Source of the DNA: Methanomassiliicoccus luminyensis B10
GTDB lineage: Archaea > Thermoplasmatota > Thermoplasmata > Methanomassiliicoccales > Methanomassiliicoccaceae
Direction: 5' to 3'
DNA: 64,000 bases
NCBI RefSeq assembly: GCF_000308215.1
Contig: NZ_CAJE01000013.1
Coordinates: 186,001-250,000, forward strand
Shown here: piece by piece, positions 5,453-50,191 of the stretch
Position numbering within the stretch: position 1 is the stretch's first letter
How the letters are laid out: the number at the start of each line of letters is the position of its first letter
Notes under the pieces: model-generated
Database searches by the model: none
What the model was told of the DNA's origin: nothing
Seen by the model: only the letters and a program-made list of their open reading frames with translations
Program-made: the position numbers and the translations under genes

Positions 5453-5632
<180 letters not shown>

Positions 5633-5777
5633 AAGGCTTCCAGAAATCTCTTCAAAGTCTTTTTCTATCCTCTCGAAAGAATCTTAATCACATCAAGCAC
5701 TCATTCCGATGAGGATGAAAGGACATATATTGAAATGCTTTTTATCTCTCAATCTCATCCAGATTGGAGGTTATTTC

Positions 5778-6062
5778 ATGGAAGTGGTTCTCATCTTATT
5801 CAAGAGTGACCTGCCCAAGGATAAGGTCATAAAGAATTTCGAGGCAAGAGCTGACCTGTACCGTGCCGTTCCTGGCCTGGTGCAGAAGTACTACATCCAT
5901 GACGAAGCGACCAGTCATTTTGGCGGCATCCATGTTTTCGATTCCAATGAGAGTGCTGAGGCGTTCATGAACTCGGATCTAGTGAAGAGTATCGGCAATG
6001 CACAGAAATCCCATGAGCCGCCTATCATTCGCCTCCTTCACGTAGATCTGGTTCTTTATTAA
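5778..6062 (+). CDS. YdhR-like dimeric alpha-beta barrel protein
   Basis: A 94-residue protein starting at ATG 5778, seven bases after TTGGAGG. The opening (VVLILFKSDLPKD), the central PGLVQKYY, and GGIHVFDSNESAEAF match the pattern of YdhR-type putative mono-oxygenases of the dimeric alpha/beta-barrel fold. Its substrate is unknown. It stands alone in AT-richer DNA to the left of integrated element 1. Confidence 0.7.
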   Translation: MEVVLILFKSDLPKDKVIKNFEARADLYRAVPGLVQKYYIHDEATSHFGGIHVFDSNESAEAFMNSDLVKSIGNAQKSHEPPIIRLLHVDLVLY

Positions 6063-6360
6063 GGCCAACAACTAACGGACAATGCGGGAGGCTCGATTTT
6101 CCCGACGGGAAGCATGTCTGTCCTTACCCAGACAATAGCTTATTGCCCTTTACCAAAGTTACAAAAAACACAGAGATTCTACGCAGATATGAATCTCATC
6201 GACGCTGGAAGCAAGCTTCGGAGAGCGTGGTCCGAGACCACACAACAAACGTCGCAGAACGTGAATGCACCCCTCAAACAGGGTGTGAATCTGTGGCGGA
6301 GAAGCAAAATTCTTTCAAGGCTTTGATAGGGGTAGCGGCTATCTGCCTGGATATGGTTGA

Positions 6361-6377
6361 TAGTGCTCCCGTCGGGA
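6361..6377. repeat. Left attachment site of element 1 (attL)
   Basis: Exact 17-base copy of the tRNA-Glu 3' end, the distal duplicate expected after tRNA-targeted integration. It lies next to the integrase stop codon. Confidence 0.85.
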
Positions 6378-6383
6378 AACACC

Positions 6384-7670
6384 TCAGAAATAGCCAGGAA
6401 GCCAGTTTTTAGAATCAATTCCGTGTTTTTCAGTATTCGATGCCTGCGATATTAACCGGGCCTTTAGCTCCTCGACGCTGCCCATTCCTAGGGCTTCAAG
6501 GAGTTCGGCGATCGGTCCCGTAACATCAGCTTTGTTATGTGATGCTGATGTTTCATTCTTCCATGCCTTCTCGATACGCGAACCGGCGCTCTCGGCGCTA
6601 ATTTGGGCATAGTAGCGCTGAGTCGTTAGTATGCTTGAGTGCCCCAGCTGGGTTGATACATCGGGGAGGAGGTTGGGGTCCTTCTCTACCGTGAGCGTGG
6701 CGAAGGTGGGCCGGAAGTCCTTGAGCCTGAAGTCTATGCCCGAGGCTTCCTGGATCTCCTTCTTCAACTCCCGGAAGTGGTTTGAGCTATAGCTGCCGTC
6801 CTGCCCGCTCCGGAGGTTCGGGATCAGGAAGGTGGCCTTCTTTCGACCATAGTACCGCAGCAGGTCATCACGCTCTTGCAAGAACGTTATGAACCCCTCG
6901 CGGTATGGCGGGGTAATCGTGACGGTGCGGTTCTCCGCCCACACTCCCGCCCCCTTCGGCGTGCGGACGTATAGCCGCCACCGTCGGGTGTCCAGGTCCT
7001 CGATATGGGCTAGGCGGAGCTCTGACGGTCTTAAGCCCGTAGCTACATAGGCGATCGTCAATAGGCGGGCCTTCGCCCTCCGCCATCCCTCCGGCTCTCC
7101 CGATGCGCTGCTGAGCTCGGGGGCCGCGTCCTGGATGGTCTCCAGGTCCTCGGCCCGCAGCGCCCTTATGGGCTTCCTGCCGGCCTTCTGAGGGAATTGG
7201 TAACCCTCCTCCCTCATCTTCTCAATCACTCTGTTGCCGTTCATGGTGAGCACGCCCTCCAGCTTCGCCAGGTATCGGACCTGCGTGTCGGGGTCCAGCG
7301 CCTTGCCCTTGTGGGCCGAGGGGTCACGCATCCAATCGAGGAACGCGCGTATCTCCTTCGGCCCCATCGAGCTCGGTCCGGTGGTCTTCAACTGGCCCTC
7401 CTCCCTCATCGCTTCCATGTTGTCGGCGATGTGGCGAAGTATCCGACTGTCATTGTCCAGGGTGCTCTTGCCCACCTGCAGCCTCCTCCTCTCGATGTAT
7501 CTCTCGACAGCGGCCTTCAGAGGGTATCTGCCCATAGATTTCCCCCTGCGTTCCCGCTGCTCTGCCTTGCTGGGACGCCCTCGCTTGCCTTCAACTCCAA
7601 GAGGTGCGCCCTCGGCCTTGATATGACCTTCCGATGTAATAAGGCCTGTCGAGAGGAGGGAGGCGGCCAT
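6384..7670 (-). CDS. Tyrosine recombinase (integrase) of element 1
   Basis: A 428-residue integrase. A core-binding region (about residues 50-150) is followed by a catalytic domain with TGLRPSELRL (first catalytic Arg), KDFRPTFATL (the box II region; the usual HxLR histidine is replaced by K-D-F-R), LGHSS (His) and the tyrosine in TTQRYYAQ. It is clearly homologous to the integrase at 53.1 kb, sharing the box II variant and a C-terminal GY motif just before the att repeat. It is expected to integrate and excise the element at tRNA-Glu. The stop codon is six bases from attL. Confidence 0.92.
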   Translation of the reverse strand: MAASLLSTGLITSEGHIKAEGAPLGVEGKRGRPSKAEQRERRGKSMGRYPLKAAVERYIERRRLQVGKSTLDNDSRILRHIADNMEAMREEGQLKTTGPSSMGPKEIRAFLDWMRDPSAHKGKALDPDTQVRYLAKLEGVLTMNGNRVIEKMREEGYQFPQKAGRKPIRALRAEDLETIQDAAPELSSASGEPEGWRRAKARLLTIAYVATGLRPSELRLAHIEDLDTRRWRLYVRTPKGAGVWAENRTVTITPPYREGFITFLQERDDLLRYYGRKKATFLIPNLRSGQDGSYSSNHFRELKKEIQEASGIDFRLKDFRPTFATLTVEKDPNLLPDVSTQLGHSSILTTQRYYAQISAESAGSRIEKAWKNETSASHNKADVTGPIAELLEALGMGSVEELKARLISQASNTEKHGIDSKNWLPGYF

Positions 7671-7673
7671 TGA

Positions 7674-8318
7674 TCACGCTCTTTTACTCTTACCCCAGGG
7701 TTTCTCTCCCTGGGAATGCCCCGCCGTCCAGAAAATATGAGCCGCGTGCTCGACTCCATGATCCGGGTTATTCTCTACGAAGTCACCCAGGGCATTTATT
7801 ACGGCCCGCATCCAGAGGTCCTTGATCTTCGGGACCTCTGCCTGGAGGTAGTTCACCATGCTCAGCCTGCCCGCCTTCTTGACCTCCTCAACCAGGTGCT
7901 GCAGGAGCTCGGGGTCGGTGGCCGGTCGATCGTAGATGCTGCCGGAGTCCACCACGCTGCTTAGATCGAAGTCCGGAAGGTGCAGGTAGTTCGCGTGTTT
8001 GATTGGCGTGACCTTCCAGGACGGCTCTCGTTTCTTGATTTCGCCAATGCTCCGCTGCCAATCTTCACCGCAAAGGCCCATGTCCGCCACGTCCCTGAAG
8101 ACCGCGAACCCTTTCGTCCGGACGATCTCCATGATTTCGGGAATCTTCGGGCGCCAATGAGCTTCCGACTTACGCTTCTTAGGGGCCGTCAAGCCTGCGA
8201 TCACCGCCCTGAGTTCTTCCCGCTCCCGCCGGTTCTCTTCGAGCTCGGCCCTTAGCTGCTGCAGGAGGTCCACGAAACCGTCCCAGGAGCGATCGCCCTC
8301 TGTCGGGTCCGCGTCCAT
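7674..8318 (-). CDS. Unknown element protein, coiled-coil N-terminus
   Basis: 214 residues. A charged, probable coiled-coil segment (residues ~15-45) is followed by a basic stretch and a globular region of unknown type. It ends three bases before the integrase start, so the two are probably co-transcribed. A DNA-binding or excision-control role would fit the position but nothing in the sequence proves it. Confidence 0.7.
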   Translation of the reverse strand: MDADPTEGDRSWDGFVDLLQQLRAELEENRREREELRAVIAGLTAPKKRKSEAHWRPKIPEIMEIVRTKGFAVFRDVADMGLCGEDWQRSIGEIKKREPSWKVTPIKHANYLHLPDFDLSSVVDSGSIYDRPATDPELLQHLVEEVKKAGRLSMVNYLQAEVPKIKDLWMRAVINALGDFVENNPDHGVEHAAHIFWTAGHSQGEKPWGKSKRA

Positions 8319-8404
8319 GCCTACCCTCCCTTGAAGTGCAGGCAGGAGGCGCCGCAGCGCGTCCGCTGGGGGATTGTGCCTGTATCCATGCCCCTCCCCC
8401 CCGA

Positions 8405-8614
8405 TCAGGACCGCTCTACGATGTCCAGCCGCTTGATGGACGGCTTCTGATACAGCAGTTCAGCGCCAGGTATGTTCTTGATGGCATCTTTCAGATCGGG
8501 GATGCGTTCCAGCGGCATCCTCAAGATCAGTCCATAGCTCACAAAAGTCTCATCGGACGATCTGTCCGGCCCTTCCTCGTTCCCGTTAGGGTTATATGTT
8601 GCGTTGTTTCTCAT
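8405..8614 (-). CDS. Small conserved element protein (LILRMPL family)
   Basis: 69 residues. The core (LILRMPL, a leucine-rich helix, then GAELLYQKPS and a final IVE) lines up with the products at 50001-50189 and 61746-61946, one in each integrated element. The alternating hydrophobic strands and one helix suggest a tiny alpha/beta fold. Function is unknown. Confidence 0.7.
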   Translation of the reverse strand: MRNNATYNPNGNEEGPDRSSDETFVSYGLILRMPLERIPDLKDAIKNIPGAELLYQKPSIKRLDIVERS

Positions 8615-8806
8615 TGGGTTCGCCTCTCTATGGGGCCCCGAGGGTACTGGCGTAGGAACCTTTCCCTCGGGTTATTTGGCGAACCGGACACCAGAGCATT
8701 TAGCATTTATGCCTACGACGCTGATTACTTGCAATAAAAAGAGATAAATGGGCCCCGCCGCGGAGTGGGGACCTGGCACGACAAGGAAAGTGTAAGAATT
8801 TGTCGA

Positions 8807-9073
8807 TCAGGTGACCCGGAGCCTCGGCCTGATGTCCTTGACCGTGGGGAAGACCTTTTCGAACTCGCCCTCCTCCAAGATGACGGTGCTAATGGGGGTG
8901 CCGTATTCGGTGCGTTCCCTGAGTCTGTCAGAGTAGTTCTTGCACTTCTGGGCGGCCACTCTGATGTCCCGGGCCGTGAGATTGCTCGGGACCCTATAGG
9001 CACCAATAACATGGTCATCTTCTTCGTTCATGTACCACAGTTCGCCGTCGGTTACATCGACAACATAGGTCAT
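8807..9073 (-). CDS. Unknown small acidic element protein
   Basis: 88 residues, beginning TYVVDVTDGELWYM. It contains a helical, charged middle section and a strand-rich end. A GAGGA motif precedes the ATG. No family is recognised. It belongs to the minus-strand gene series of element 1. Confidence 0.55.
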   Translation of the reverse strand: MTYVVDVTDGELWYMNEEDDHVIGAYRVPSNLTARDIRVAAQKCKNYSDRLRERTEYGTPISTVILEEGEFEKVFPTVKDIRPRLRVT

Positions 9074-9108
9074 TTTAGTCCTCCTCGGATTCTATTTCAT
9101 CTCGTGAT

Positions 9109-9324
9109 TTATATATCTGATTCGGATGCTGCTTCCTCCATGGCACGCCCCTCTTCCCTGATCTTCCGCTCCGCCCATTGTGGCCACGTCATGTCAATCG
9201 AGTCTATCGTGACAATGACCGCTTCGGTGCCGCGAAGGGCTTTAGAGATCGCCGTGGGGAGCCTACCCTCGATCTCTGCAGGGTTCGCCTCTGTCGCGAT
9301 CAGCAGCCTGACCTCGGCGATCAT
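9109..9324 (-). CDS. Unknown small element protein
   Basis: 71 residues from ATG 9324, chosen because it overlaps the upstream gene's stop as ATGA. The N-terminal half has two short strands around a helix. The C-terminal half is charged and helical (WAERKIREEGR). No homologue is recognised. Confidence 0.55.
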   Translation of the reverse strand: MIAEVRLLIATEANPAEIEGRLPTAISKALRGTEAVIVTIDSIDMTWPQWAERKIREEGRAMEEAASESDI

Positions 9325-9569
9325 GCGACCACCTTCTCGCACACGTCCTTCCCGCCCTGGTGCGTTGTTCCGTTCTTCATATCATCCATCTCCTTCGCTT
9401 CTTCCTCGGGTTCGTGATCGTCCAGGACCTCCTCCACCATGAGGCAGAACCTCAGAGCCTCGGCGTCCCGGGGGCAGATGACGAAGAGCAGCCGCGGTGG
9501 CCGGGCCCGCTCGTGGGCATGATCACACCCTCCCGGCGAGCGCCGCGAGCAGCTGCTCGACATTGGCAT
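9321..9569 (-). CDS. Unknown small element protein, start uncertain
   Basis: The C-terminal part (LLFVICPRDAEALRFC then an acidic helix) looks like real coding sequence, and its stop overlaps the next start as ATGA. The N-terminal ~30 residues overlap the gene at 9523 in another frame and look less natural, so the true start may lie further downstream. Confidence 0.4.
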   Translation of the reverse strand: MPMSSSCSRRSPGGCDHAHERARPPRLLFVICPRDAEALRFCLMVEEVLDDHEPEEEAKEMDDMKNGTTHQGGKDVCEKVVA

Positions 9570-9711
9570 CGAGGTTGACTGGCGGAAGGTCCTCTAGGGC
9601 AAGGTAGTAGCGTCCCTCGGGCCCCTTGAGGACCTTGTGCTCCAAACGGACACCCACTGCGCGCCTTCGATACTCCCAGCCGTCCGCCTTCACCATGCCA
9701 ATCACAAGCAT
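9523..9711 (-). CDS. Unknown 62-residue element protein
   Basis: Starts MLVIGMVKADGWEYRRR and continues with a charged strand-rich region. No family is recognised. It is the first gene of a short minus-strand run that diverges from the ribbon-helix-helix gene at 9789. Confidence 0.5.
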   Translation of the reverse strand: MLVIGMVKADGWEYRRRAVGVRLEHKVLKGPEGRYYLALEDLPPVNLDANVEQLLAALAGRV

Positions 9712-9788
9712 GTTCTACCCCCATTCGGTGGCAAGATTTGCCCCTTGGTATGTGTAGGTAGTAGTAAGTATTAATATTCTTTGGTAGT

Positions 9789-9968
9789 ATGAGGTTGTCT
9801 ATGGTAGCAAAAAAGAAGCAGGAGGAGGAACTGAAGGAGAAGGTTAGCGTGTCCCTATCAAAAGAGACTATTGAGTGGCTTGATAAAGAGGTCGAGGCCA
9901 AGGAGTTCGGCTCTCGGAGCCATGGCATCGAGAAGGCCATCGCAGAATACAGAAAGGGGAAGAAGTAA
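9789..9968 (+). CDS. Ribbon-helix-helix DNA-binding protein
   Basis: 59 residues (or 55 from the in-frame ATG at 9801). The pattern KVSVSLSKETIEWLDKEV followed by FGSRSHGIEKAI is a classic MetJ/Arc (CopG-like) ribbon-helix-helix. It is the only plus-strand gene in element 1 and diverges from the 9523 gene. The AT-rich sequence at 9755-9785 is the likely shared promoter, so it may be the element's repressor. It resembles the RHH protein at 48179, which shares an RSHGIE motif. Confidence 0.8.
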   Translation: MRLSMVAKKKQEEELKEKVSVSLSKETIEWLDKEVEAKEFGSRSHGIEKAIAEYRKGKK

Positions 9969-9996
9969 GGAAGCGACTAGGCCTTATCGGTTAAGC

Positions 9997-10377
9997 CTAG
10001 CCTTCTAGTTCTTCGGGTTTGATATCGTAATGCTTTATCCATCTCTGTACTTCCGGAGACTCCCAACTCTTTTTGGCTTTCTTGCTTTTTACCGCGGCAT
10101 TTTTTACAGTCTTCAACATTCTGATCGTTGCTATTCGAGGGGCGGTTATAAGCTCCTTAAAGAATAGGTCATGCTCACCGCCTGGATTGGCTCGACCTGA
10201 TTCTTCCCATTCTGCAAAGAGACTTTCAGGCATCTCCATTAGTCTAAGAGCTTCAGGGTATCCCATAGTCCCCGAGGAACATAGATTAAGGATTTTCTCT
10301 TTATCTTCCTGGGTCAGTTGAGAAGGCGTCTTGACATTATGCCAGTCGACAGTAAACTCGTCTAAAACCGAAGTCAT
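9997..10377 (-). CDS. Unknown element protein, possible terminase small subunit-like
   Basis: 126 residues, mostly helical. An N-terminal half with a helix-turn-helix-like stretch (YPEALRLMEMPESLFAEWEESG) is followed by a lysine-rich tail. Phage small terminase proteins have this look, but no decisive motif was found. Repeats at 10499-10577 lie upstream of its start, in the intergenic region. Confidence 0.5.
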   Translation of the reverse strand: MTSVLDEFTVDWHNVKTPSQLTQEDKEKILNLCSSGTMGYPEALRLMEMPESLFAEWEESGRANPGGEHDLFFKELITAPRIATIRMLKTVKNAAVKSKKAKKSWESPEVQRWIKHYDIKPEELEG

Positions 10378-10498
10378 AGTACTTCCATCGGCTCTGCACT
10401 TATGAACCTTGTCTATTGTCGGTAAGAGCTACCGTCGCCCAGCAGGATTTTTTCTAAGCGACAGCACAATCGAAGTGTCCCGTCCTCCCCTTCTCCCG

Positions 10499-10577
10499 CT
10501 GGGCGTCGCTTGCGTTTGTACCTCTGGGCGTGATTACTATTTTAGGAGCTATAGAATAATTATGTACCTCTGGGCGT
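10499..10577. repeat. Iteron cluster A (CTCTGGGCGT repeats)
   Basis: Three copies of a CTGGGCGT core at 10499, 10524 and 10570, the last two inside the longer match TACCTCTGGGCGT. They lie in the 228-bp gap upstream of the minus-strand gene at 9997-10377. The first two copies are 25 bp apart, the same spacing as in cluster B at 12.47 kb. Confidence 0.65.
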
Positions 10578-10605
10578 CGGGCGGGGAAACGTTCCTATTG
10601 CATCA

Positions 10606-11460
10606 TCAGCGCGTCCCGTCACGGTCCAGCCTGGAAATCATCGAATCCAGGACCGGCTGGTACCGGCATCTGCAGAAGGGAGGGTGGCCTTCTTCGAAGC
10701 GATAGGTGCAGCCGGGATTGGGGATGGGGTGCGTCTCCAGGGCCTCCTCGATCGAGAAGACCTTCCCGTGTGAAGACCGGCACGCTTCGCACCCGCCGAC
10801 GGCGGAGATCTTGACCTCTCTGAACCTCTTCCGTTCCATTTGCAGGTCCATGTCGTTCGACAGCCTGATCAGGGGAGAGGGGTCCTTCCCCTGCGATTCC
10901 AGGAAGATGGCCTGCCCGTAGTAGATCATCTTCAGCAGATGCAGGTCCCCGATGTTCTCCAGAACGAGACGGTTGCTCAGTGACCAGACCGCATCGGCGT
11001 AGGTCCAGGGCCGTCCGTCCTTCCGGAGCTTGGCATATTCGGCCTCGATGGCGACCTTGTCGATGCCGTATTGGCGGAACAGACGGGCGCCGGTGTTGAT
11101 CACGTGCAGCTCCGCCTTCCGTGCGTTGAGCTTCTTCTCGCCCTCATCATCCAACAGTTGGCGCTCCTTCGTCTCCGGGTTCACCAAGACATGCAGACTA
11201 GCCATGCAGTGAGGGCAGCTGAGCTTGGTCGACCGCTTGACCTCCACGATCTTCCCGCAGCGAGGGCAGGGCGAAGGCGGCAAAGGGCCGGCCTTCGGTC
11301 GGTCCTTCCTGACCGCGGATGTCCCTGTTCCGTCGCTGATGTCGGGCGAGTTCGCTCTACCGGTCGCCGTGACCTCTGGCCGCTCCATCTTCTCCCCACA
11401 CCGCCCGCAAAAGTTCGCTGCAGCCCCAACCTCACTTCCGCATTTCGAACAGATTGTCAT
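10606..11460 (-). CDS. Zinc-ribbon protein with head-morphogenesis-like C-terminus
   Basis: 284 residues. An N-terminal double zinc ribbon (CSKCG..CGRCG) is followed by a linker, a second ribbon (CPRCG..CPHC) near residue 65-85, a helical middle, and a C-terminal section with CEACRSSHGKVF and HPPFCRCRYQPV. That last pattern resembles the C-terminus of phage Mu gpF-type minor head proteins (C-x-x-C near a G-K-V-F and a terminal C-R-C). A fusion of cellular-style ribbons to a virion protein tail would be unusual. The assignment is tentative. Confidence 0.55.
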   Translation of the reverse strand: MTICSKCGSEVGAAANFCGRCGEKMERPEVTATGRANSPDISDGTGTSAVRKDRPKAGPLPPSPCPRCGKIVEVKRSTKLSCPHCMASLHVLVNPETKERQLLDDEGEKKLNARKAELHVINTGARLFRQYGIDKVAIEAEYAKLRKDGRPWTYADAVWSLSNRLVLENIGDLHLLKMIYYGQAIFLESQGKDPSPLIRLSNDMDLQMERKRFREVKISAVGGCEACRSSHGKVFSIEEALETHPIPNPGCTYRFEEGHPPFCRCRYQPVLDSMISRLDRDGTR

Positions 11461-11566
11461 AGTCCCCTATCAGGAACGCGGGCGCCGTACATAATCGATA
11501 TGTGATGAGCAGAACATCCCGCTCTCTGCGCGCCGCCTCAACTACCAGTGCGTTTCGGACCCCTTA

Positions 11567-11737
11567 CTAACGTCCGTTCCCGTTAATGATCTCGGTGATG
11601 CTGCTTATCTCGCCCTTCTTCAGCGCATCAAACTTGTCCATATTAAGGCACGAGTCGCACACTATAGTTCGGCAGTGGGAACAGTCGCCGCACTTCTTGT
11701 CGGTGTTGTCCTTGCTTTCGCTCTTCTTCCTAGCCAT
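11567..11737 (-). CDS. Small cysteine-rich zinc-binding element protein
   Basis: 56 residues from ATG 11737, preceded by AGGAGG at good spacing. A lysine-rich start is followed by CGDCSHCRTIVCDSC, enough for one zinc site, and a helical tail. A longer version would begin 24 bases upstream. Function is unknown. Confidence 0.6.
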   Translation of the reverse strand: MARKKSESKDNTDKKCGDCSHCRTIVCDSCLNMDKFDALKKGEISSITEIINGNGR

Positions 11738-11738
11738 A

Positions 11739-11972
11739 TCATTCCTCCTTCTGGGCGTCATGCCGTCCTTTAGCTTCCACGTCGAGCATGATCACGCGCC
11801 GCCTGCCTTTCGGGGGGACCAGCCCACAGGTGTCGCACTCGTGAAGGTCGGCGGAGAGTACCCGCCCGTGGGGACACTCCAGCACCTTCAATGGGTCGAC
11901 GATCAGGAAGCAGTTCCTGCCATTAGGGTTCAGGCGATCCTCCAGATTCTTTATTCTATTCTCGATACTCAT
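11739..11972 (-). CDS. Small zinc-binding element protein with coiled-coil start
   Basis: 77 residues from ATG 11972, which overlaps the upstream gene's stop by four bases. A short helix (SIENRIKNLEDRL) is followed by strands and a zinc-like set of residues (CPHG, H, CDTCG). The reading frame continues further upstream but that part is composition-biased shadow. No family is recognised. Confidence 0.6.
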   Translation of the reverse strand: MSIENRIKNLEDRLNPNGRNCFLIVDPLKVLECPHGRVLSADLHECDTCGLVPPKGRRRVIMLDVEAKGRHDAQKEE

Positions 11973-12376
11973 CTTATCGTCTCCCCGATCTTCTTCTCGA
12001 GCTCCGCGAGCCTGCGTTCCAGGTCCGACTGCTCGCTCACCTTGGCGTATTGCCCGGCCAGCCCGGCGATGGCGTTGGCCACCGAAGGGTGCATCTTCCC
12101 GCTGCCGACCATGTTGATCGTCCTCGACAGCAGCGGCCGCAAGTCTCCGATCTCCTTGATGTTGCAGTTCTTCCATCCCTCGAGACCATCACGGAGCTTG
12201 GTCTTCCCGCCCTTTCTCAGCGCTTCCTTCCTCCGCTGCACGATCTCCGGCCTCTGGTCATGGACGGAACAGAACTCGCTGTCCCTGAGACAATATGCCC
12301 GGCAACGGCTTCCGTCCGGCCGGACGTGAGTACATCGTCTCGATGGTCCCGAAACTGACGGGGGGGCGGGGGTCAT
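11969..12376 (-). CDS. Zinc-knuckle protein, phage small-terminase-like
   Basis: 135 residues. The N-terminus (CTHVRPDGSRCRAYCLRDSEFCSVH) is a small zinc motif common in phage and mobile-element proteins of unknown role, often encoded near terminase genes. The rest is helical and ends in a coiled coil (LERRLAELEKKI). Cluster B repeats lie about 95-160 bases upstream of its start. Confidence 0.6.
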   Translation of the reverse strand: MTPAPPSVSGPSRRCTHVRPDGSRCRAYCLRDSEFCSVHDQRPEIVQRRKEALRKGGKTKLRDGLEGWKNCNIKEIGDLRPLLSRTINMVGSGKMHPSVANAIAGLAGQYAKVSEQSDLERRLAELEKKIGETIR

Positions 12377-12469
12377 AACCGCCCCTGTTCGTTCGCCTCT
12401 AAGTCCTCGAAAGGGCAGGGATATTTGGCGCTCTCCTGCCCCTCGGTCGACCGAGTTCGCTCTCTCCCT

Positions 12470-12538
12470 CTGGGCGTGATACCGACATTTACCTCTGGGC
12501 GTGCCTTGGGCTCAGAGTCCTTCATTACCGCTGGGCGT
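12470..12538. repeat. Iteron cluster B (CTCTGGGCGTG repeats)
   Basis: Three CTGGGCGT cores at 12470, 12495 and 12531, within CTCTGGGCGTG or CGCTGGGCGTG contexts. As in cluster A, the first two are 25 bp apart and the group precedes a minus-strand gene (12376). A short frame runs through them but is probably not coding. Confidence 0.65.
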
Positions 12539-12560
12539 GATGAGAGCTCGGCCTCCCTGA

Positions 12561-12917
12561 TCATGGCCCGCCGCTCCGTCGCTCACGTCCCCTACGCTCG
12601 ATCTCCCCGGTGAAGGCCCGCACATACCGCTGGGACAGCTCCATGACCTCCGAGTCGTGCAGGGTGATTGTGTAAAGGGTGGCGTATAGCTCGCCCCCGA
12701 TGGCTGCGATCTTTTCCTGCAGGTTGATCACTCGTGGGTCCATGCCGGGGTCGGCACCGCGCTCCAGGTCCCCGATCGCCATCTGGTAGAGCTCGAGGGC
12801 GAGGCGAACGGAGTCCGGATGATCGAGTATTCGCCGTTCCCGCTCCGTATCCACGGCCGTGCGGGGCAGGAGCTGTATGCCTCCGGCCGGCCATCCATCT
12901 GGATGGCCACGATTCAT
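12561..12917 (-). CDS. Unknown element protein downstream of tape measure
   Basis: 118 residues, helical, with an ELYQMAIGDLERG segment and a basic C-terminus. Its start overlaps the tape-measure stop (ATGA at 12914-12917), which supports translational coupling. The position just after a tape measure is usual for distal tail or minor tail genes, but no motif confirms that. Confidence 0.55.
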   Translation of the reverse strand: MNRGHPDGWPAGGIQLLPRTAVDTERERRILDHPDSVRLALELYQMAIGDLERGADPGMDPRVINLQEKIAAIGGELYATLYTITLHDSEVMELSQRYVRAFTGEIERRGRERRSGGP

Positions 12918-14704
12918 CCCATCATCCCCCTCTCCCGCTGGAGCTTCGAGGCGATGGCTTCCGTCACCAGGTCCACGTCCCTCGCCCCGTCCACGTTGAA
13001 GATGTAAGTGTTGCCGCCTCCCCTGCCGGAGTCGTAGGCCCTCGTCTCCGCCGGGTTGAGAACACGCTCGGGGCCGGTATCGCCAATGACCGCAAAGGTG
13101 GGCTCCGTCACTAGTCCACCACTACCGTAATAAGCGACGAGACTCCCCCCGTAATCCTCCCACCGCTGATCCTCGGTCCACTCGCCGTCGGCACTCCCAC
13201 TATGGGCCGTCTCCCATAGATACTTCCAACTAGCGTCGCTCTTGTATGTGGGCTTGGTATTCCGGTATTTCGCTACAGTATTGTCGTCAAGTTCCACGTC
13301 CGAGTCCCCCACGTACCAGAACCGTGTGGGGTTTCCGTTGGCATCAGTCCCGTCGCGGGACCACCGTATCATGACGTGACGGGTCTTCACAGGACCGCCG
13401 GAACCGCCCGCCCCACCGGCCGAGGAGCCTCCTCCACTCCCATCGCTGAGCCCCTGGAGATTAAGCTCCTGTCCCTGCTGCCAATTGTTCTCCGCATTTT
13501 TCCTGAGCTCGTCGCCCTGCTCCTTGTTGGCAGGCGCACCGTACATCTCGGAGAGCGCGTACACTCCCGCGGCCGCAACCCCGGCGGCGCCTACCAGTGC
13601 CAGACCGAACCCGGTGAGGCCGAGGCCGAAGGACTTGGCAGCGTTCCAAATCCACTGAGCGGAGGCGGCCGCAAGCGTGGCACCAGTCAGCAGTGAGAAC
13701 GCTATCCTCGTTTCCTCGCTGTCGGTTGTGAAGGCACCAAATGCGAAGCCGAGTGAGGCTGCCCCCATGGCGGCCGAGAAGAGCGGTCCCGCCTTGTCAC
13801 TGCCCAAGCCGCTGATCTTCCCCTTGAGAGTTTCTAGGTGCTCACCGATGCCTAAGCCCTGCATCCCCTTCCATGCTCTTGACAGACCATCGATGCCGGA
13901 GATGACCGCCGGCACCACCGTCAGGGCGGTCCTGGTCATCTGATCATTGAGATCGTTCTGAGCCATCTGCACCTTCTGCGTGGCGAGCTCGGCGGCCTGA
14001 TTGGCGATCTCCAGGTTAGTGTAGGCGGCCACCGTCTCTGGGGCGTCGGCCCCATACTTCGCCAGGGCGGCGTTGTAACTCGTCTGGGCAACGCCTACCG
14101 ACTTGGTCGCTCGGTCGGCGGCCAGGGTCGCCATCTCCACCTGGTATTGCTTTTTCTCGATGCTGTCGAACGCCTGGTAGAGGGCGAAGCCAGAGGTCAA
14201 TGCCTGGGTCATCCCCAGGGCGGAATCCTTCATGGCTGCAGTGTTCTTCTTGCTGGCCGCCTCCACCTTCTCGTGGGACTGAGCCACCTTGTCGTTCGCC
14301 AGGGCGGCGTCGTTGTTGGCCTTGGTCATGTTCTGCGCCGCTGCCACCGCCTGTGGAGAGTTGGCCCCATATTCGGCCACTGCGTCGTTGTAAGTTTGTT
14401 GTGCTTCGGCCGCCCTTTGAGCTGCCTGCTCCGCCTCAATGACCGCGTTGCTCAACGATATCTGAGCCCTCTCCGTGTCCGATAGAGCGCGGCCTAGGTC
14501 CTCGCCCGATCGCGCCGTCTCGTTCATCTCATCGGAGAGGCCGCGCATGGAGTCACTGGCCTGGTCGCCGGCCTGGGCCATGTTCGAGGCCATCTCTTGC
14601 GTCTCGTTGGAAAGGTCTTCTACCGCGCCCTTGGCCTCCTCCGCGCCCCTTTTGAGCTCGGAGGAGTTCATGCCCACCCGGAAGCTTATGCCCTCGATCT
14701 CCAC
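12914..14704 (-). CDS. Tail tape-measure protein
   Basis: 596 residues. Residues ~10-300 are alanine-rich coiled coil with two related copies of a Y-N-A-(A/V)-x-x-Y-G-A-(N/D) module roughly 110 residues apart. Hydrophobic segments at about 320-400 are typical of tape measures that enter the host membrane. The C-terminus has the family hallmark FAVIGDTGPERVLNP. Tape measures set tail length in tailed viruses. This one is shorter than most, implying a short tail or reduction. It is the main evidence that element 1 descends from a head-tailed archaeal virus. Confidence 0.85.
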   Translation of the reverse strand: MEIEGISFRVGMNSSELKRGAEEAKGAVEDLSNETQEMASNMAQAGDQASDSMRGLSDEMNETARSGEDLGRALSDTERAQISLSNAVIEAEQAAQRAAEAQQTYNDAVAEYGANSPQAVAAAQNMTKANNDAALANDKVAQSHEKVEAASKKNTAAMKDSALGMTQALTSGFALYQAFDSIEKKQYQVEMATLAADRATKSVGVAQTSYNAALAKYGADAPETVAAYTNLEIANQAAELATQKVQMAQNDLNDQMTRTALTVVPAVISGIDGLSRAWKGMQGLGIGEHLETLKGKISGLGSDKAGPLFSAAMGAASLGFAFGAFTTDSEETRIAFSLLTGATLAAASAQWIWNAAKSFGLGLTGFGLALVGAAGVAAAGVYALSEMYGAPANKEQGDELRKNAENNWQQGQELNLQGLSDGSGGGSSAGGAGGSGGPVKTRHVMIRWSRDGTDANGNPTRFWYVGDSDVELDDNTVAKYRNTKPTYKSDASWKYLWETAHSGSADGEWTEDQRWEDYGGSLVAYYGSGGLVTEPTFAVIGDTGPERVLNPAETRAYDSGRGGGNTYIFNVDGARDVDLVTEAIASKLQRERGMMG

Positions 14705-14707
14705 TAA

Positions 14708-15082
14708 TCATCCCCCCTTAGGTCCTTCCTCACTGTCGCCAACCGACGGGACCGTTGCAGATGGTTGCTCCGAGACCTTCACCAGCAGCCGCTCCTCATC
14801 TAGTACCTGACCCCGGATGGTGGCCGCAATGAGCTTCATCGACACGTCCTTGTTCCTTGCGTTGATCAGCCGGCCAGCGTCCACTAGGGTGAAGTTCTCC
14901 ACCTCGTCTTTGAGGCCACAATAGATGACCATCCTGGTGTCCTCGTCGCTCTCCAACTGTATGTCGCTGACCTTGCGACCGGTGAGCTCGTTCCAGTTGC
15001 AGATGGTGTTGAGGTTCCACTGAAATTTGAGGAGGTGGAAATCGATGCTTCCTGCCCGGACCCTGTCCTGGTCCATGGTCAT
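14708..15082 (-). CDS. Probable tail assembly protein upstream of tape measure
   Basis: 124 residues, a small alpha/beta protein with an N-terminal FHLLKFQWNLNTICNWNELTG and acidic C-terminus. In tailed viruses the gene just before the tape measure usually encodes the tail assembly chaperone, and the size fits. No slippery sequence was identified. The functional call rests on position. Confidence 0.5.
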   Translation of the reverse strand: MTMDQDRVRAGSIDFHLLKFQWNLNTICNWNELTGRKVSDIQLESDEDTRMVIYCGLKDEVENFTLVDAGRLINARNKDVSMKLIAATIRGQVLDEERLLVKVSEQPSATVPSVGDSEEGPKGG

Positions 15083-15336
15083 CTCCTCCTTTCCCGGTCG
15101 GTAACCGGTTCGGTCGCCTCTTCCAAGCAGCCATTGCTGCCCACGAACACGACATGCACATACTCCTCACTCTTGACCGGCGAGTGCTGATGGGCGTAGG
15201 CCGCTACACCGTCATGCCTCTCTGCCGTGCGCACCGTCATGAACCGATCATCTTTGCCGTCGTACGAGGCGACAAGCTTGTCCATGCTGGTGTCGAGGAA
15301 CACGTAGTGATCTCCAGTCCGGACAATCTTCTTCAT
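15079..15336 (-). CDS. Unknown small element protein
   Basis: 85 residues, strand-rich (VRTGDHYVFLDTS, EYVHVVFVGSNG), ending in an arginine-rich tail. It overlaps both neighbours by four bases, so it is part of one tightly packed transcription unit. No family is recognised. Confidence 0.6.
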   Translation of the reverse strand: MKKIVRTGDHYVFLDTSMDKLVASYDGKDDRFMTVRTAERHDGVAAYAHQHSPVKSEEYVHVVFVGSNGCLEEATEPVTDRERRR

Positions 15337-15986
15337 GGCCGCTCACCATCCCTGCCTTTCTCAAGATCATCATAAGTCCCTTGGTCCGCCAGAAGGCCCA
15401 TGGGTTTGCCATCGTAGAAGCACCGACCATCGATCATGATCCGGAGCTCATGTCCGCAATTTGGGCAGGGACAAGTCTTTGTAAACACCATAGTGGACAT
15501 TCCCAATCTGACCTCTCCATCCATGGAAAAGACGGACATTCTATTCTTGGAAAATGTCGTTGTTCTTTTCAGATAGAGCATAAGCGTCTTGACGATAGGA
15601 AGGGGGTTGCCGCATTCCGGGCAGGACATACTATCCAGGCTCTCTGGCTTCTCCACTATCTTCTCGTTGATGGAGACGACCATGTCACGAGGATAGGCTG
15701 AAAGGATAGCTTCCTCCTGCTTTCTAATTCTCTCCCCCTCCTCCCTTTCCATGAGTTCATGGCGCAACCTTTCCTCCTCGGCTTTCTTGGCCTGCTCCTC
15801 GGCACGGATTCTTTCTTTCTCACCCTCAAGCGAGCTGCCGTTCTGTCTGAGGATCCTGTCGATGACTTCGCTGTCATGGACATTCCTACCGGGCGTTTGA
15901 TGCCACGGGTCTCTTTCCATCTTGTTCGCCTGAGACCTCTCTTCGATGGCTTTCCCCTGGGCCTGCTGGATGGGGACTCCCATCAA
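15333..15986 (-). CDS. Coiled-coil and zinc-ribbon element protein
   Basis: 217 residues. Residues ~50-95 are a strongly charged coiled coil. A split zinc ribbon follows: CPECG at about 120 and CPCPNCG at about 175. Overlaps both neighbours by four bases. Function is unknown; ribbons of this kind in viral genes often bind nucleic acid or hold a fold together. Confidence 0.65.
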   Translation of the reverse strand: MMGVPIQQAQGKAIEERSQANKMERDPWHQTPGRNVHDSEVIDRILRQNGSSLEGEKERIRAEEQAKKAEEERLRHELMEREEGERIRKQEEAILSAYPRDMVVSINEKIVEKPESLDSMSCPECGNPLPIVKTLMLYLKRTTTFSKNRMSVFSMDGEVRLGMSTMVFTKTCPCPNCGHELRIMIDGRCFYDGKPMGLLADQGTYDDLEKGRDGERP

Positions 15987-16180
15987 TATCCCCTCTGAGT
16001 AAGGAAGTCATCCAGCGCTACCCTGGTGGCATGTGAGAAGTCAACGCAGCGCTCTTCCTTGTAACGCTGCAGGCGCCGGGCCGTCTGGGGTCCGAGCTTT
16101 ACCCTGATCCAGCCCTCGTTCTCCTGTCCTGCCGAGTTCCTCGCCGCCTGCTGCGGCCTCTCGTTCCGGGTCATCGGCAA
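15983..16180 (-). CDS. Small ribbon-helix-helix-like protein
   Basis: 65 residues. The C-terminal half (WIRVKLGPQTARRLQRYKEER, then FSHATRVALDDFL) has the strand-helix-helix layout of RHH DNA-binding proteins. It begins the operon that runs through the tape-measure gene, and so could be its regulator. The upstream gap holds GAAACTC repeats. Confidence 0.6.
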   Translation of the reverse strand: MPMTRNERPQQAARNSAGQENEGWIRVKLGPQTARRLQRYKEERCVDFSHATRVALDDFLTQRGY

Positions 16181-16411
16181 TTGACAATTGGCCTGGAGGG
16201 TTTAACGATTATGGCAATTACAGTACAATTCCGTTTACATTTGATGCTAGAGAGATCCATTTCTCATATAGAACAGAAATCATTAGCGCTAGCCTGGTCG
16301 CGCGTACGCGCGTAGGCGACTGTAGAAACTCCTGAAACTCAACCATGCTGGCTACGCGTGCATTGACCCTGCATAAACTCAAGAAACTCGCCGGGCAGGC
16401 AAGCTCGATGA
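16181..16411. promoter_or_regulatory. Control region with paired GAAACTC repeats
   Basis: This gap precedes the minus-strand structural operon. It contains a GCGCGTACGCGC palindrome near 16302 and two copies of AAACTC-N2-GAAACTC, at about 16325-16340 and 16374-16389, 49 bp apart. They could be regulator sites. Confidence 0.4.
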
Positions 16412-16929
16412 TCAGCGGCCCTTGACCCGGTCCCCCAGGAACCGCCTACGGGCCTTCAGGAACGCCTCCGCGTCGAACCTGGAGAAGCCCGTCGACCCGA
16501 TCCTGCACTTGGTCAGTGTCCGTTGGGTGAGATCGTGGTGGTCCTTCTTCAGCCTGGTGTCGGTCCATCGCACCATTTCGCCGGCGCCCTGCCCGTCGAT
16601 CGCGTAGATCTTGAACCGGTCGGGGGACGTCTCCATGCGCACGTCGTCCGCGGCCATGCTCCCGCAGATGGGCGTGCGGGGATTCAAAATGTTCGATTGC
16701 TCATCGAGCTCGACCTCCATGCCGCCCGCCTTGATCAGTGCTCCCGCCCGTCCTACCTCGAGGCTAGCGAACTCGAAGAACCGCTTGACGATATCGCTTC
16801 GGACCTTATCGTGGAAGACTCCGAGCTCGCCCTTGCGTAGAGGAGGTTTGTTACCAGGTCCGTGAATGGGTCGGCCAGCAGGCGCGGGGGGGGGGCCGCG
16901 TCCTCCCCGCTATTTCCCCGCTGTTTCAC
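16412..16929 (-). pseudogene. Element gene interrupted by a one-base frameshift
   Basis: Two frames join to give one plausible protein of about 172 residues. From GTG 16929 the frame reads to LLADPFTDLVTNLLYA. With one base added near 16835 it continues KGELGVFHDKVRSDIVKRFFEFA and on through the 102-residue frame that begins at the internal ATG 16720. The C-terminal part ends FLGDRVKGR. A run of ten G (plus strand) near 16890 is a second weak point. No family is recognised. Confidence 0.55.
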
Positions 16930-16948
16930 CGTCCCCGGCCCTCGCTGA

Positions 16949-17494
16949 TCACTTGTCCGTCTGCTGCCCCATGGCTGCCTTGGCATAACAGTCGAAGTGC
17001 ATCAGGGCCGTCCGGCTCTTGATCTCCCCTTTCAGGAGCTCTTCGAACCTGCGGGTTTCTAATTCATACCCTGCGTCACAGTCGTATACTCGCTTTCCGC
17101 ACAATATGCATGTGGGCTCCCCAGCAAAACGGGAAAGATCGATGGCCATGGGCCCATCGTAGTCTACGATGTAGAGCAACGAGAAGATGGGTAATGCCTG
17201 CATGCGGTGAAGTTCCTCGAAGCAATCTAGACGATGATTCAGCCTTTCGATTGTCTCTTCGAGCTCGGCCACTCTGCGGGGCAATTCCTCCGATAGTAGA
17301 TGCACGTGTTTCCTCGCCTGTTTGATCATCATAGAGGCAGTGCTTTCATGGATGCCAATCACCTGAGCGAGGGTTGCCGCTTCAGCATTCGCCACGGCCC
17401 TTAGGTCGGAGTAACCGGCCTCGCGAAGCCGTTCAGCAGTATATGGGCCACTCAAATCTAAGTCTTCTATTGTCTCGATCTTCCTGTCATTCAT
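16949..17494 (-). CDS. Helix-hairpin-helix and zinc-binding element protein
   Basis: 181 residues. The first 60 look like a helix-hairpin-helix pair (TAERLREAGYSDLRAVANA, then TLAQVIGI), which binds DNA non-specifically. A coiled coil follows (residues ~65-95), then a zinc-like set (CILCGKRVYDC, and C near the end). Function is unknown. Confidence 0.65.
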   Translation of the reverse strand: MNDRKIETIEDLDLSGPYTAERLREAGYSDLRAVANAEAATLAQVIGIHESTASMMIKQARKHVHLLSEELPRRVAELEETIERLNHRLDCFEELHRMQALPIFSLLYIVDYDGPMAIDLSRFAGEPTCILCGKRVYDCDAGYELETRRFEELLKGEIKSRTALMHFDCYAKAAMGQQTDK

Positions 17495-17589
17495 GGGCTC
17501 CTTGGAGCATCGACGTAGGGTCGATAAAAAGAGTGAGGTTGCTCCTGTTGAAGCTGATGGAGTAGGGCGCCCTGGCAGTCATTAATCTA

Positions 17590-18606
17590 TTATTCGGTGC
17601 CAGCGAGTCTGCTCTCGATGAACTCCCTGGTCAGTGGGTCGGTATAGTCTACGGTCAGCAACCTGATTCCCAGCATCCTGCACATCTTCGCCTTCTGCGC
17701 ATCTCTCTCCCGGAGCTTTTCTAAGGCCTCCGCCCCGCCCCATGCCTTGATCGGATGGAAATGTTGCTGGCCCTGGTACTCGAAGGCGAGGCCCCTGGCG
17801 GGCAGAAACAAGTCCAGTTCCAAGCCGTTGAGGAACGAAGGGCGATGGTGCTTCAGGACCTCCTCTCCCGGGAATATGTCCGCAACGATTTGATAGAGCA
17901 TAGTCTCGCCTATAAAGCGCTCTCCGACCTTCCGGAAACCGAATTCCTGGCGGGTGATGCTTTCAATCCTGTTCTCGACAGTCCGCCGGAGGGTACTGAG
18001 CTCCCTGTTGTTCTTGAACGGTGCTGTGGTGGTGCGGGCCCATTCTAGACGGGCTTCCAGGTCCGCATCGATCATGGAGCGCAGCCGTTGAAGATCTCCT
18101 TGCACCTCAACTGGGCACACATCATCGAGGAAGACGAAGATACCGGGCTGCACCCCAAGACGATAGTATGTCTGCTCGATGTACCATCCATAATGCTGCT
18201 TGAACTCGCCGCCATACATTTCATGACAATATCGCAGCGATGGCCGTTTCATATTGCACCGATGACAAAGCCCGTTCTCGAACCTGATTATGGACATGGG
18301 ATCGTCCACGGTCATCGATTCGGCGGCCAGGCTCGGTATGAACGTTCCATTTGACAGGGGCGCATTGACCGTTGGATTTGCATTAGGATACCTCTTGTAC
18401 AATCCCCTCAGCCGGAAGTAGTTCTCCACCAAGGGTTTGCAGCAGAGGCATAGGGCAGGTTTGGAGCTGCTGGACTCTGAAAAAGCGATGAATGTCCCAT
18501 AATGTGGCGGATAGTGAACGACGGGGAATGGGAGGTCCTCTCTGACCGTGGCGCCAAGAGATACCTCGGGGCGAACCTTCTTTCTGCGGGGCGGCATGCC
18601 AATCAT
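17590..18606 (-). CDS. Probable PD-(D/E)XK-type endonuclease with zinc sites
   Basis: 338 residues. The N-terminal half has CLCC and CHRC pairs, suggesting a zinc fold. The C-terminal ~110 residues read LELDLFLPARGLAFEYQGQQHF, then DAQKAKMCRMLGIRLLTVDY. That D-x-F..E-Y-Q-G-x-Q-H-F pattern is typical of Vsr/DUF559-like restriction-endonuclease folds. It is the last gene before the tRNA-Glu end of the element and may be cargo for competition with other DNA, or a packaging or recombination nuclease. The specificity is unknown. Confidence 0.65.
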   Translation of the reverse strand: MIGMPPRRKKVRPEVSLGATVREDLPFPVVHYPPHYGTFIAFSESSSSKPALCLCCKPLVENYFRLRGLYKRYPNANPTVNAPLSNGTFIPSLAAESMTVDDPMSIIRFENGLCHRCNMKRPSLRYCHEMYGGEFKQHYGWYIEQTYYRLGVQPGIFVFLDDVCPVEVQGDLQRLRSMIDADLEARLEWARTTTAPFKNNRELSTLRRTVENRIESITRQEFGFRKVGERFIGETMLYQIVADIFPGEEVLKHHRPSFLNGLELDLFLPARGLAFEYQGQQHFHPIKAWGGAEALEKLRERDAQKAKMCRMLGIRLLTVDYTDPLTREFIESRLAGTE

Positions 18607-18945
18607 CCATCTTCGAGCGGGATACCCGCCTAATTTTTTCTTATTCTCATGAAGCTTCCGCCGAGGCGGGGGAGCTCGACGCCTTGGAGGGGGTAGGGAG
18701 GGTTGAACTTGACCTACCTACCTACCTACCTACCTACCTATTCACATTAACAACAATAACATAACAAAACAGTTTGTGTTAAGTTATTCTTAATTGTCTC
18801 TTCCCCCGGCAGGTTCCTCTTCAAAATGAACCCTTTCTCCCTCGGTCATCACAAGAAAAAGAGAGTAAGAGGTTTCGCTAGCCAGCGTACCTTGTACCGA
18901 AAATACCCGAATTGACCTTCAAAAACAGCTTACTGGATGATTTTG
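18607..18945. other. Element end, non-coding, with (ACCT)7
   Basis: No gene is supported here. A tetranucleotide microsatellite, (ACCT)7, lies at about 18712-18740 and is followed by AT-rich sequence leading to the attR site. Confidence 0.5.
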
Positions 18946-18962
18946 TAGTGCTCCCGTCGGGA
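18946..18962. repeat. Right attachment site of element 1 (attR)
   Basis: Exact copy of 6361-6377, overlapping the last 14 bases of tRNA-Glu. The tRNA gene remains complete. Confidence 0.85.
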
Positions 18963-19021
18963 TTTGAACCCGAGTCGAAGCCTCGAGAGGGCTTCATGAT
19001 TGGCCACTACACTACGGGAGC
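18949..19021 (-). tRNA. tRNA-Glu (anticodon CUC)
   Basis: Cloverleaf with acceptor GCTCCCG/CGGGAGC, discriminator A, T-arm CTCGGG-TTCAAAT-CCCGA and anticodon loop CTCTCGA. CCA is not encoded. A TATA-like TTTAATTAA lies about 30 bp upstream. Its 3' end is the integration target of element 1. Confidence 0.95.
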
Positions 19022-45363: not shown

Positions 45364-45377
45364 AGTGGACAGGGGGG
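45364..45377. repeat. Left attachment site of element 2 (candidate)
   Basis: 14-base direct match to 54325-54338. It does not lie in a tRNA gene. Confidence 0.6.
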
Positions 45378-45574
45378 AGTTCCCTCGCCGCTCTATCCAG
45401 ATGGATGTTTGAAGAATTCAATAACCGCAATTTGGGAAATCCAGGCTTCCAAACCTATTCCCCTTTTTCTCTCAATATTTCCCGGGGAATACAGCAAGGG
45501 GGCTTTTCATGATCCGGAGCTCGGGGGGACCGCCATGCCCCGTTATTCTTCATTCCCCGTCTAAGAGCAGTCGG

Positions 45575-45648
45575 AATATCGTGAATATCGTGATAAAGGC
45601 CAATTCTTGACCCATCCAGATGGTTATCACGATATTGCTCACGATATT
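45575..45648. repeat. AATATCGTGA inverted-repeat site upstream of serine recombinase
   Basis: AATATCGTGAATATCGTGATAA (45575-45596) is followed after 27 bases by TTATCACGATATT-GCT-CACGATATT (45624-45648): each arm is a tandem pair, and the arms are inverted. The same motif recurs inside the primase-helicase gene near 52.85 kb. It is a likely binding site for the recombinase (res-like) or a replication or partition protein. Confidence 0.75.
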
Positions 45649-45715
45649 GTGTCGATACTGATTTAGCATGATGTTTAAGGCGCGATATCATAAGGCCCCC
45701 CAGAGGATTTGAAAC

Positions 45716-46345
45716 ATGAAGGTAGCTCTGTATGCCAGAGTTTCAACCGAGGACCAGGATACCGACGTTCAGAAGTTCAGGCTTGAAGAATACGCAAAGC
45801 TCCAGGGATGGGAAATCTTCGACTACTTCAAGGATGAAGCATCGGGAGCCGATGATTCCCGGCCGGGGCTCGACACCATGCTAGAAGCAGCCGGCATAAC
45901 CAAAGACGGCAGATCATCCAAGCCCAAGTATAACGCGATCGTCGTTACAAAGCTAGACCGGATTATGAGATCTCTCGTTTCCTTGGAGCTCCTAATCTCG
46001 AAGCTCGATAAGCAAAAGGTTTCCCTGATTGTCATGGACCAAGGGATTGACACCGGGGCGGACGGCAACGACGATACAAAGAGGCTCATCCGACGCATTC
46101 TAGGGGCCGTTGCGGAGTGGGAGAGGGGAATGATTAGGATTAGGGTCAAAGAGGGCATGCAGAAGGCCAAGAAACACGGCACAAGGAGCGGGGAGCCCAT
46201 CGGCCGGCCGAGAGCTCACATTCCCCCCGAGGCCCTTGCTGCTGTGAGATCCGGGAGGTCCTTGAGGGATGTAGCAGCCGAGTATCACATTTCACTTGCT
46301 ACTCTGCAAAGGCGTTCCAAAAGGGAGGCCCCCGTTCCTTTATGA
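45716..46345 (+). CDS. Serine recombinase (resolvase/invertase type)
   Basis: 209 residues. N-terminal catalytic domain with ALYARVSTEDQ (active serine), VVTKLDRIMRS, and a helix E region; C-terminal helix-turn-helix (RSLRDVAAEYHISLATLQRR) for DNA binding. Small resolvases of this kind invert or resolve DNA at nearby sites. The palindromic repeats just upstream are its obvious candidate site. Confidence 0.92.
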   Translation: MKVALYARVSTEDQDTDVQKFRLEEYAKLQGWEIFDYFKDEASGADDSRPGLDTMLEAAGITKDGRSSKPKYNAIVVTKLDRIMRSLVSLELLISKLDKQKVSLIVMDQGIDTGADGNDDTKRLIRRILGAVAEWERGMIRIRVKEGMQKAKKHGTRSGEPIGRPRAHIPPEALAAVRSGRSLRDVAAEYHISLATLQRRSKREAPVPL

Positions 46346-46411
46346 GCAAAGGGGCCTGAATCGCCTTGTCTCAGAACCTCTAGTTTCTGAAACATCATTC
46401 CGTCTGCATGT

Positions 46412-46735: not shown

Positions 46736-46753
46736 GCTTTTCCTCATCGGCAT

Positions 46754-47632: not shown

Positions 47633-47647
47633 TCTTTCAACCTCTGT

Positions 47648-49781: not shown

Positions 49782-49786
49782 CTTGA

Positions 49787-50189: not shown

Positions 50190-50191
50190 TC

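What the first reader, a model, noticed from the sequence alone, without database searches (positions are those of the whole stretch)
6361..18962. 12.6-kb element integrated in tRNA-Glu with exact 17-bp att repeats
The tRNA-Glu 3' end is duplicated precisely 12.6 kb away, next to the stop codon of a tyrosine recombinase. The tRNA stays whole. The enclosed genes are nearly all unknown. This defines a complete mobile element with base-level ends.
Basis: seen in the sequence. Interest (0 to 1): 0.68.

Follow-up and report, generated by a model that had tools for sequence, protein, structure and literature searches.

The report
Satellite-like mobile element in methanogen tRNA
A 12.6-kb mobile element sits in a tRNA-Glu gene of the gut methanogen Methanomassiliicoccus luminyensis and carries a few genes borrowed from a tailed virus (a likely DNA-packaging selector, a tail chaperone and a tail ruler) but no capsid or packaging motor, so it and its relatives may be virus parasites of a kind known in bacteria and, as far as I could find, not yet described for tailed viruses of archaea.

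Summary
An exact 17-bp repeat lies at 6361-6377 and 18946-18962. The right copy is the 3' end of an intact tRNA-Glu(CTC); the left copy ends 6 bp from the stop codon of a tyrosine recombinase. Sister genomes keep the right flank without the insert, and one holds the two flanks joined. The genome's size and contig number match M. luminyensis B10.

The enclosed genes are not all unknown. A translationally coupled operon encodes a tail chaperone, a full-length tape measure protein and a protein whose viral homolog occupies the small-terminase slot, overlapping the large terminase. All three have relatives in one 39-kb virus. Large terminase, portal, capsid, tail tube and lysis genes were not found.

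Elements in three other genomes of the order (7.8-12.5 kb, direct repeats, own integrases) share some of the Zn-ribbon protein, the divergent regulator and the small-terminase-like protein. Three carry the last without a large terminase; one carries a terminase pair.

Best reading: a family of satellite-like elements resembling bacterial PICIs, this one with an extra tail cassette. Integration and gene content are shown; helper dependence and packaging are inferred. A scrambled provirus remnant is the main rival.

The parts
6361..6377 (.). distal attachment site: 17-bp copy of the tRNA-Glu 3' end
   Evidence: exact repeat; joined-flank homolog in G013
6384..7670 (-). tyrosine recombinase (integrase), 428 aa
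   Evidence: PF00589 E 1e-11; PHROG integrase E 3.5e-25; 65% identical to the G125 integrase
7674..8318 (-). unknown 214-aa protein; sits where related elements have a replication ATPase or primase-like gene
   Evidence: no Pfam, PADLOC or NCBIfam match; position compared
8405..8614 (-). small backbone protein, 69 aa
   Evidence: relatives in G010 elements
9789..9968 (+). divergently transcribed ribbon-helix-helix-type protein, candidate repressor
   Evidence: homologs in divergent orientation in G125 and G010; the G010 homolog matches a PHROG transcriptional repressor, E 0.001
9997..10377 (-). unknown 126-aa protein
   Evidence: only a very weak PHROG match, terminase small subunit, E 0.03; not relied on
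10606..11460 (-). zinc-ribbon protein with a C-terminal domain related to a host gene found beside CDC48-like ATPase genes in family f6
   Evidence: the Phage_Mu_F match (E 0.03) does not show a head protein
11739..12176 (-). small backbone protein (C-terminal part conserved)
   Evidence: homologs in G125 and G130, next to the small-terminase-like gene in G130
11969..12376 (-). candidate terminase small subunit, 135 aa, N-terminal zinc-finger-like motif
   Evidence: homolog in virus G147 (31% over 108 aa, E 2e-18) overlaps the large terminase start by 4 bp; also in G125, G130, G010, G013, G016
12561..12917 (-). unknown 118-aa protein, start/stop overlap with tape measure gene
   Evidence: no family match
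12914..14704 (-). tail tape measure protein, 596 aa
   Evidence: PHROG tail tape measure E 4e-7; relative over residues 1-594 in virus G147; 46% to G126 provirus
14708..15082 (-). tail assembly chaperone, G part only
   Evidence: 49% over 84 aa to G147 chaperone, E 2e-27; lacks the -1-frame T extension of G147
15079..15336 (-). unknown 85-aa protein in the coupled operon
   Evidence: no family match at E below 0.1
15333..15986 (-). backbone Zn-ribbon protein with two CxxC pairs
   Evidence: relatives with similar cysteine pairs in G010, G130, G125; BLAST support from G010 only
15983..16180 (-). small ribbon-helix-helix-like protein (judged from the sequence), first gene of the coupled operon
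   Evidence: sequence reading; similar small proteins at the same place in G010 and G130
16949..17494 (-). helix-hairpin-helix protein resembling the RadA N-terminal domain
   Evidence: PF14520 E 2e-8; RadA model E 7e-14 over residues 5-95
17590..18606 (-). nuclease-like cargo protein, 338 aa
   Evidence: C-terminal region matches phrog_19778 (unknown, E 4e-50) and phage HNH/homing endonuclease families
18946..18962 (.). proximal attachment site inside the tRNA
18948..19021 (-). tRNA-Glu(CTC), kept whole; integration target

Best explanation
This is an integrated mobile element that most likely lives as a satellite of a tailed virus. Shown: its ends and empty site are those of an insertion by its own tyrosine recombinase into the 3' end of tRNA-Glu(CTC), with the tRNA end replaced by the element's copy. 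Shown: it encodes a tail chaperone, a full-length tape measure protein and a homolog of the protein in the small-terminase slot of a 39-kb virus, in one operon with element-specific genes, and genes for the large terminase, portal, capsid, tail tube or lysis were not found. Shown: elements of similar size and plan, each with its own repeats and integrase, occur in other Methanomassiliicoccales. Inferred: on virus infection the divergent repressor is relieved and the integrase excises the element; its small terminase steers the helper's large terminase to element DNA, which fills helper particles. Inferred: its chaperone and tape measure protein act on the helper's tail, either setting tail length in mixed particles or competing with helper tail assembly.
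For: Ends and empty site. Sister elements with att repeats and integrases: G125 11.08 kb, G130 10.4 kb, G010-A 7.8 kb and G010-B 12.5 kb. Shared proteins. Small-terminase slot: the viral homolog ends 4 bp inside the large terminase gene (E 3e-46 to terminase families). Window, G125, G130 and G010-A show this protein without a recognised large terminase. Tape measure and chaperone match the same virus. Coupled intact operon 16180 to 11969. In seven of eight codon-aligned comparisons third positions differ more than both others.
Against: The small-terminase role rests on gene position in a single virus; no family model covers the protein, and other viruses of the order put unrelated proteins in that slot. 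No helper-type large terminase was found in the own genome. The recognisable replication ATPase of G130 has no counterpart here. The chaperone lacks its T extension. G010-B carries a large terminase with its own small terminase. G125 and G130 genes were only partly scanned for viral families. The tail cassette was seen in one element only. No data on excision or particles.
Confidence: 0.47

Rival explanations
1. Remnant of a tailed provirus: a siphovirus integrated in tRNA-Glu and lost most of its structural genes; the chaperone, tape measure and terminase-like genes are leftovers.
For: Viral relatives of three genes in one virus; chaperone without T extension; no replication ATPase recognised; a region of unclear coding at 8.3-9.9 kb.
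Against: The three genes come from two distant parts of the viral map yet are joined here in one overlapping operon together with genes shared with elements in which no tail genes were seen. The integrase is 65% identical to that of G125 and 28% to that of G147. No broken gene in the operon.
Confidence: 0.27
2. Defence island on an integrative element: the incomplete chaperone and tape measure protein act as decoys that block tail assembly of invading viruses, and the nuclease-like cargo adds defence; spread is by ordinary integrative-plasmid means.
For: Chaperone G part without T; variable cargo at the tRNA end; tail assembly inhibition is a known satellite strategy in bacteria (PMC11364771).
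Against: No PADLOC match for any of the window element proteins scanned. Nothing in the passages read shows Tai proteins to be tape measure homologs. A full-length tape measure protein with conserved C-terminus suggests more than a decoy.
Confidence: 0.13
3. Ordinary integrative plasmid-like element that picked up viral genes by chance, without satellite or defence function.
For: Primase-helicase and ParB-like genes in G130; weak primase match in G010-A.
Against: Repeated retention of the small-terminase-like gene in several elements across families.
Confidence: 0.13

Closest known systems
Phage-inducible chromosomal islands (PICIs) of bacteria
   Same: Small (10-15 kb, PMC11364771), chromosomally integrated, integrase at one end, divergent regulator candidate, small-terminase candidate without a large terminase.
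   Different: Archaeal host; no protein shown to be related; zinc-finger-type candidate terminase; adds tail chaperone and tape measure genes; no replication gene recognised; no helper known.
Capsid-forming PICIs (cited in PMC11389934 as stealing only phage tails)
   Same: Satellites that encode part of the virion themselves.
   Different: Those make capsids and take tails; here no capsid gene was found and a tail cassette is present.
Fusellovirus satellites of archaea (cited in PMC11389934)
   Same: Archaeal elements that depend on a virus for spread.
   Different: From general knowledge, plasmid-like and packaged in spindle-shaped particles; no terminase or tape measure gene.
Tailed provirus of G126 and viral contig G147 (IMGVR_UViG_3300048598_000487)
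   Same: Homologous tape measure in both; chaperone (clear in G147, weak in G126); small-terminase-slot protein in G147.
   Different: G147 is 39 kb and also has a large terminase, portal, capsid and tail tube genes; its integrase belongs to another branch (28% identity).

Membership tests
tRNA-targeting tyrosine-recombinase integrative element | Direct repeats formed by the tRNA 3' end, tRNA kept whole | tested here: met
tRNA-targeting tyrosine-recombinase integrative element | Recombinase next to one end | tested here: met
   6 bp between stop codon and repeat
tRNA-targeting tyrosine-recombinase integrative element | Empty site in relatives | tested here: met
   right flank without the element in sister genomes; joined flanks in G013, at the TTC tRNA
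PICI-like satellite | Size about 10-15 kb | tested here: met
   12,585 bp; relatives 7.8-12.5 kb
PICI-like satellite | Small terminase without large terminase | tested here: inconclusive
   homolog of the protein in the small-terminase slot of G147 present, no large terminase found; function inferred from position in one virus
PICI-like satellite | Divergent master regulator | tested here: inconclusive
   divergent ribbon-helix-helix-type gene conserved in three elements; regulation untested
PICI-like satellite | Own replication module | tested here: inconclusive
   primase/D5-like helicase in relative G130; none recognised in the window element
PICI-like satellite | No virion structural genes (ordinary PICI) | tested here: not met
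   tape measure protein and chaperone present
PICI-like satellite | Induction and packaging by a helper virus | not testable with these tools
   no infection or particle data
Autonomous tailed provirus | Large terminase, portal, major capsid protein | tested here: not met
   20 open reading frames of the interval scanned against Pfam and 18 against PHROGs, none found; G147-type large terminase absent from the genome

The most novel reading that the evidence does not exclude
A family of satellites of tailed archaeal viruses, analogous to PICIs but built from different proteins, of which this member takes over both packaging (own small terminase) and tail assembly (own tape measure and chaperone) of its helper.
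Probability: 0.35. Interest if true: 0.82.

Novelty: new variant of a known kind. Interest (0 to 1): 0.62.

Why it matters
Satellites shape phage-host warfare and gene transfer in bacteria, but in the held literature the only archaeal satellites I found mentioned are those of fuselloviruses (PMC11389934). A family with defined ends, present in a cultured human gut methanogen, would let one test whether virus parasitism of the PICI type arose independently in archaea, and whether a satellite can control tail assembly. It also gives Methanomassiliicoccales genomes a concrete mobile-element family where prophage software detected nothing (PMC4153887).

Tried and rejected
Reading the 284-aa protein (10606-11460) as a phage Mu F head protein: rejected, its best relatives are a conserved gene beside CDC48-like ATPase and TPR genes in family f6. 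Pyrrolysine read-through hiding longer genes: nothing pointed to it. Plain deletion derivative of a provirus: disfavoured, kept as rival. Structure predictions of the chaperone (pLDDT 50) and of the nuclease-like protein (pLDDT 35) were too poor to search. Collection scans with the integrase found no close relative, and scans with the nuclease-like protein and the small-terminase-like family found nothing beyond G147 itself. No PDB sequence relative of the nuclease-like protein. A large-terminase search of the order tested the small-terminase assignment: four genomes have related terminases, with no protein of this family next to them. The conserved stretch 3' of the tRNA was aligned but not explained.

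Full report
WHERE IT IS. The window lies in G000:C13:186001-250000; the genome has 2,620,233 bases in 26 contigs. PMC4153887 gives the same total and contig number for M. luminyensis, so the host is taken to be strain B10 (strain name from general knowledge). That paper notes that prophage software found nothing in these genomes and that clusters of 10-30 unknown genes might be unrecognised prophages.

THE ENDS. The 17-bp repeat is exact and unique at 6361-6377 and 18946-18962. Fifteen bases are the 3' end of an intact tRNA-Glu(CTC) on the minus strand. The integrase stop codon lies 6 bp inside the distal copy. Of 300 random 74-bp segments of the window, one had an exact match of 17 bp or more within 20 kb.

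EMPTY SITE. The right flank (tRNA-Glu to tRNA-Ser and, where the contig allows, on to about 25.6 kb) is collinear in sister genomes without the element; the tape measure gene is absent from the other 14 family genomes. In G013 a tRNA-Glu(TTC) continues directly into sequence matching window 6360 to 6310, and a script that joined the two window flanks aligned to it across the junction. In G010 and G011 the gene at 5703-6098 also lies beside tRNA-Glu(TTC). So the left flank resembles the TTC locus of a sister genus; the own TTC locus on contig C15 lacks it. My reading is that 5.0-6.36 kb is debris of earlier insertions at tRNA-Glu genes, but a past exchange between the two tRNA-Glu loci is not excluded.

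GENES. From 16180 down to 11969 the genes overlap by a few bases or abut: a ribbon-helix-helix-like protein, a Zn-ribbon protein, an 85-aa protein, a tail chaperone, the tape measure protein, a 118-aa and a 63-aa protein, and a 135-aa zinc-finger-like protein. None shows an interruption. The tape measure protein matches a PHROG tape measure family, the tape measure protein of Nitrososphaera provirus Pro-Nvie1, that of a provirus contig in G126 with portal, capsid and tail tube genes, and, over residues 1-594, that of viral contig G147. The chaperone is 49% identical over 84 aa to the G147 chaperone. In G147 an AAAAAAC site near the chaperone stop leads in the -1 frame to a T extension that ends at the tape measure start, the usual programmed-frameshift layout (general knowledge); the window has no such extension.

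THE 135-AA PROTEIN. Its G147 homolog (L143:16468-17004) overlaps by 4 bp the start of a clear large terminase. Gene position thus points to a terminase small subunit. This is a positional inference from one virus: PHROGs does not name the family, and terminases found in four genomes of the order have unrelated neighbours.

THE FAMILY. G125 carries an 11,084-bp element in tRNA-Arg(TCG), with a 21-bp repeat and a 65%-identical integrase. G130 carries a 10.4-kb element in tRNA-Gly with a 16-bp repeat. G010 carries at least two elements in tandem, 7.8 and 12.5 kb, at a 17-19-bp repeat without a tRNA found nearby. Shared proteins are listed; the Zn-ribbon relation has BLAST support only between window and G010, and the rest is alignment of cysteine pairs. 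Window, G125, G130 and G010-A have the 135-aa protein without a recognised large terminase; G010-B has a recognised small and large terminase. Of the G125 and G130 genes, the larger ones were scanned for viral families and gave no virion function, only regulation, replication and partition; small genes there were not all scanned.

HOW IT MOST LIKELY WORKS. The marks of integration into the tRNA are shown. Excision, response to a helper, redirection of the helper terminase and action on helper tails are inferred by analogy with PICIs (PMC11364771) and from the gene set. The tail cassette could set tail length in mixed particles, or could spoil helper tails; the missing T extension fits the second, or decay. 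I put the satellite reading at about 0.47, scrambled provirus at 0.27, a defence element at 0.13 and a plain integrative plasmid at 0.13.

LITERATURE. In the held library I found no archaeal satellite of tailed viruses; the review PMC11389934 mentions archaeal satellites only with reference to fuselloviruses. Most subscription papers and preprints are not held, so this is a limited statement.

Noticed in passing
window 45364-54325: A second integrated element: 14-bp repeat AGTGGACAGGGGGG at 45364 and 54325, a resolvase, a 924-aa primase-polymerase and an integrase 46% identical to the first; relatives in G010 (91% identity of the primase N-terminal part) lie beside the same type of repeat.
   Followed up: partly
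window 61746-63998: Further proteins related to those of G010 elements (a 66-aa protein and a primase-like fragment), suggesting that the array of elements continues to the right.
   Followed up: no
window 18840-18945: A stretch just 3' of the tRNA is conserved 3' of tRNA-Glu or tRNA-Arg genes in G005, G008, G011, G012, G105, G108 and G125, and once without a tRNA in G010:C15; whether it belongs to the elements or is a tRNA trailer is open.
   Followed up: partly
window 5455-5600: Looks by eye like a frameshifted NifH-type fragment (motif GGIGKSTT) outside the element.
   Followed up: no
window 5576-6356: Left outer flank matches the neighbourhood of tRNA-Glu(TTC), not of tRNA-Glu(CTC), in a sister genus.
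   Followed up: partly
L137+L138 (G010:C4:103446-123830): Tandem elements at one attachment site, one with small and large terminase genes.
   Followed up: partly
L135:7827-8327: Integrase remnant directly at the distal repeat of the G130 element, a sign of repeated insertion at the same tRNA-Gly.
   Followed up: no
window 10606-11460: Element protein joins zinc ribbons to a domain otherwise found in a host gene next to CDC48-like ATPase genes.
   Followed up: partly
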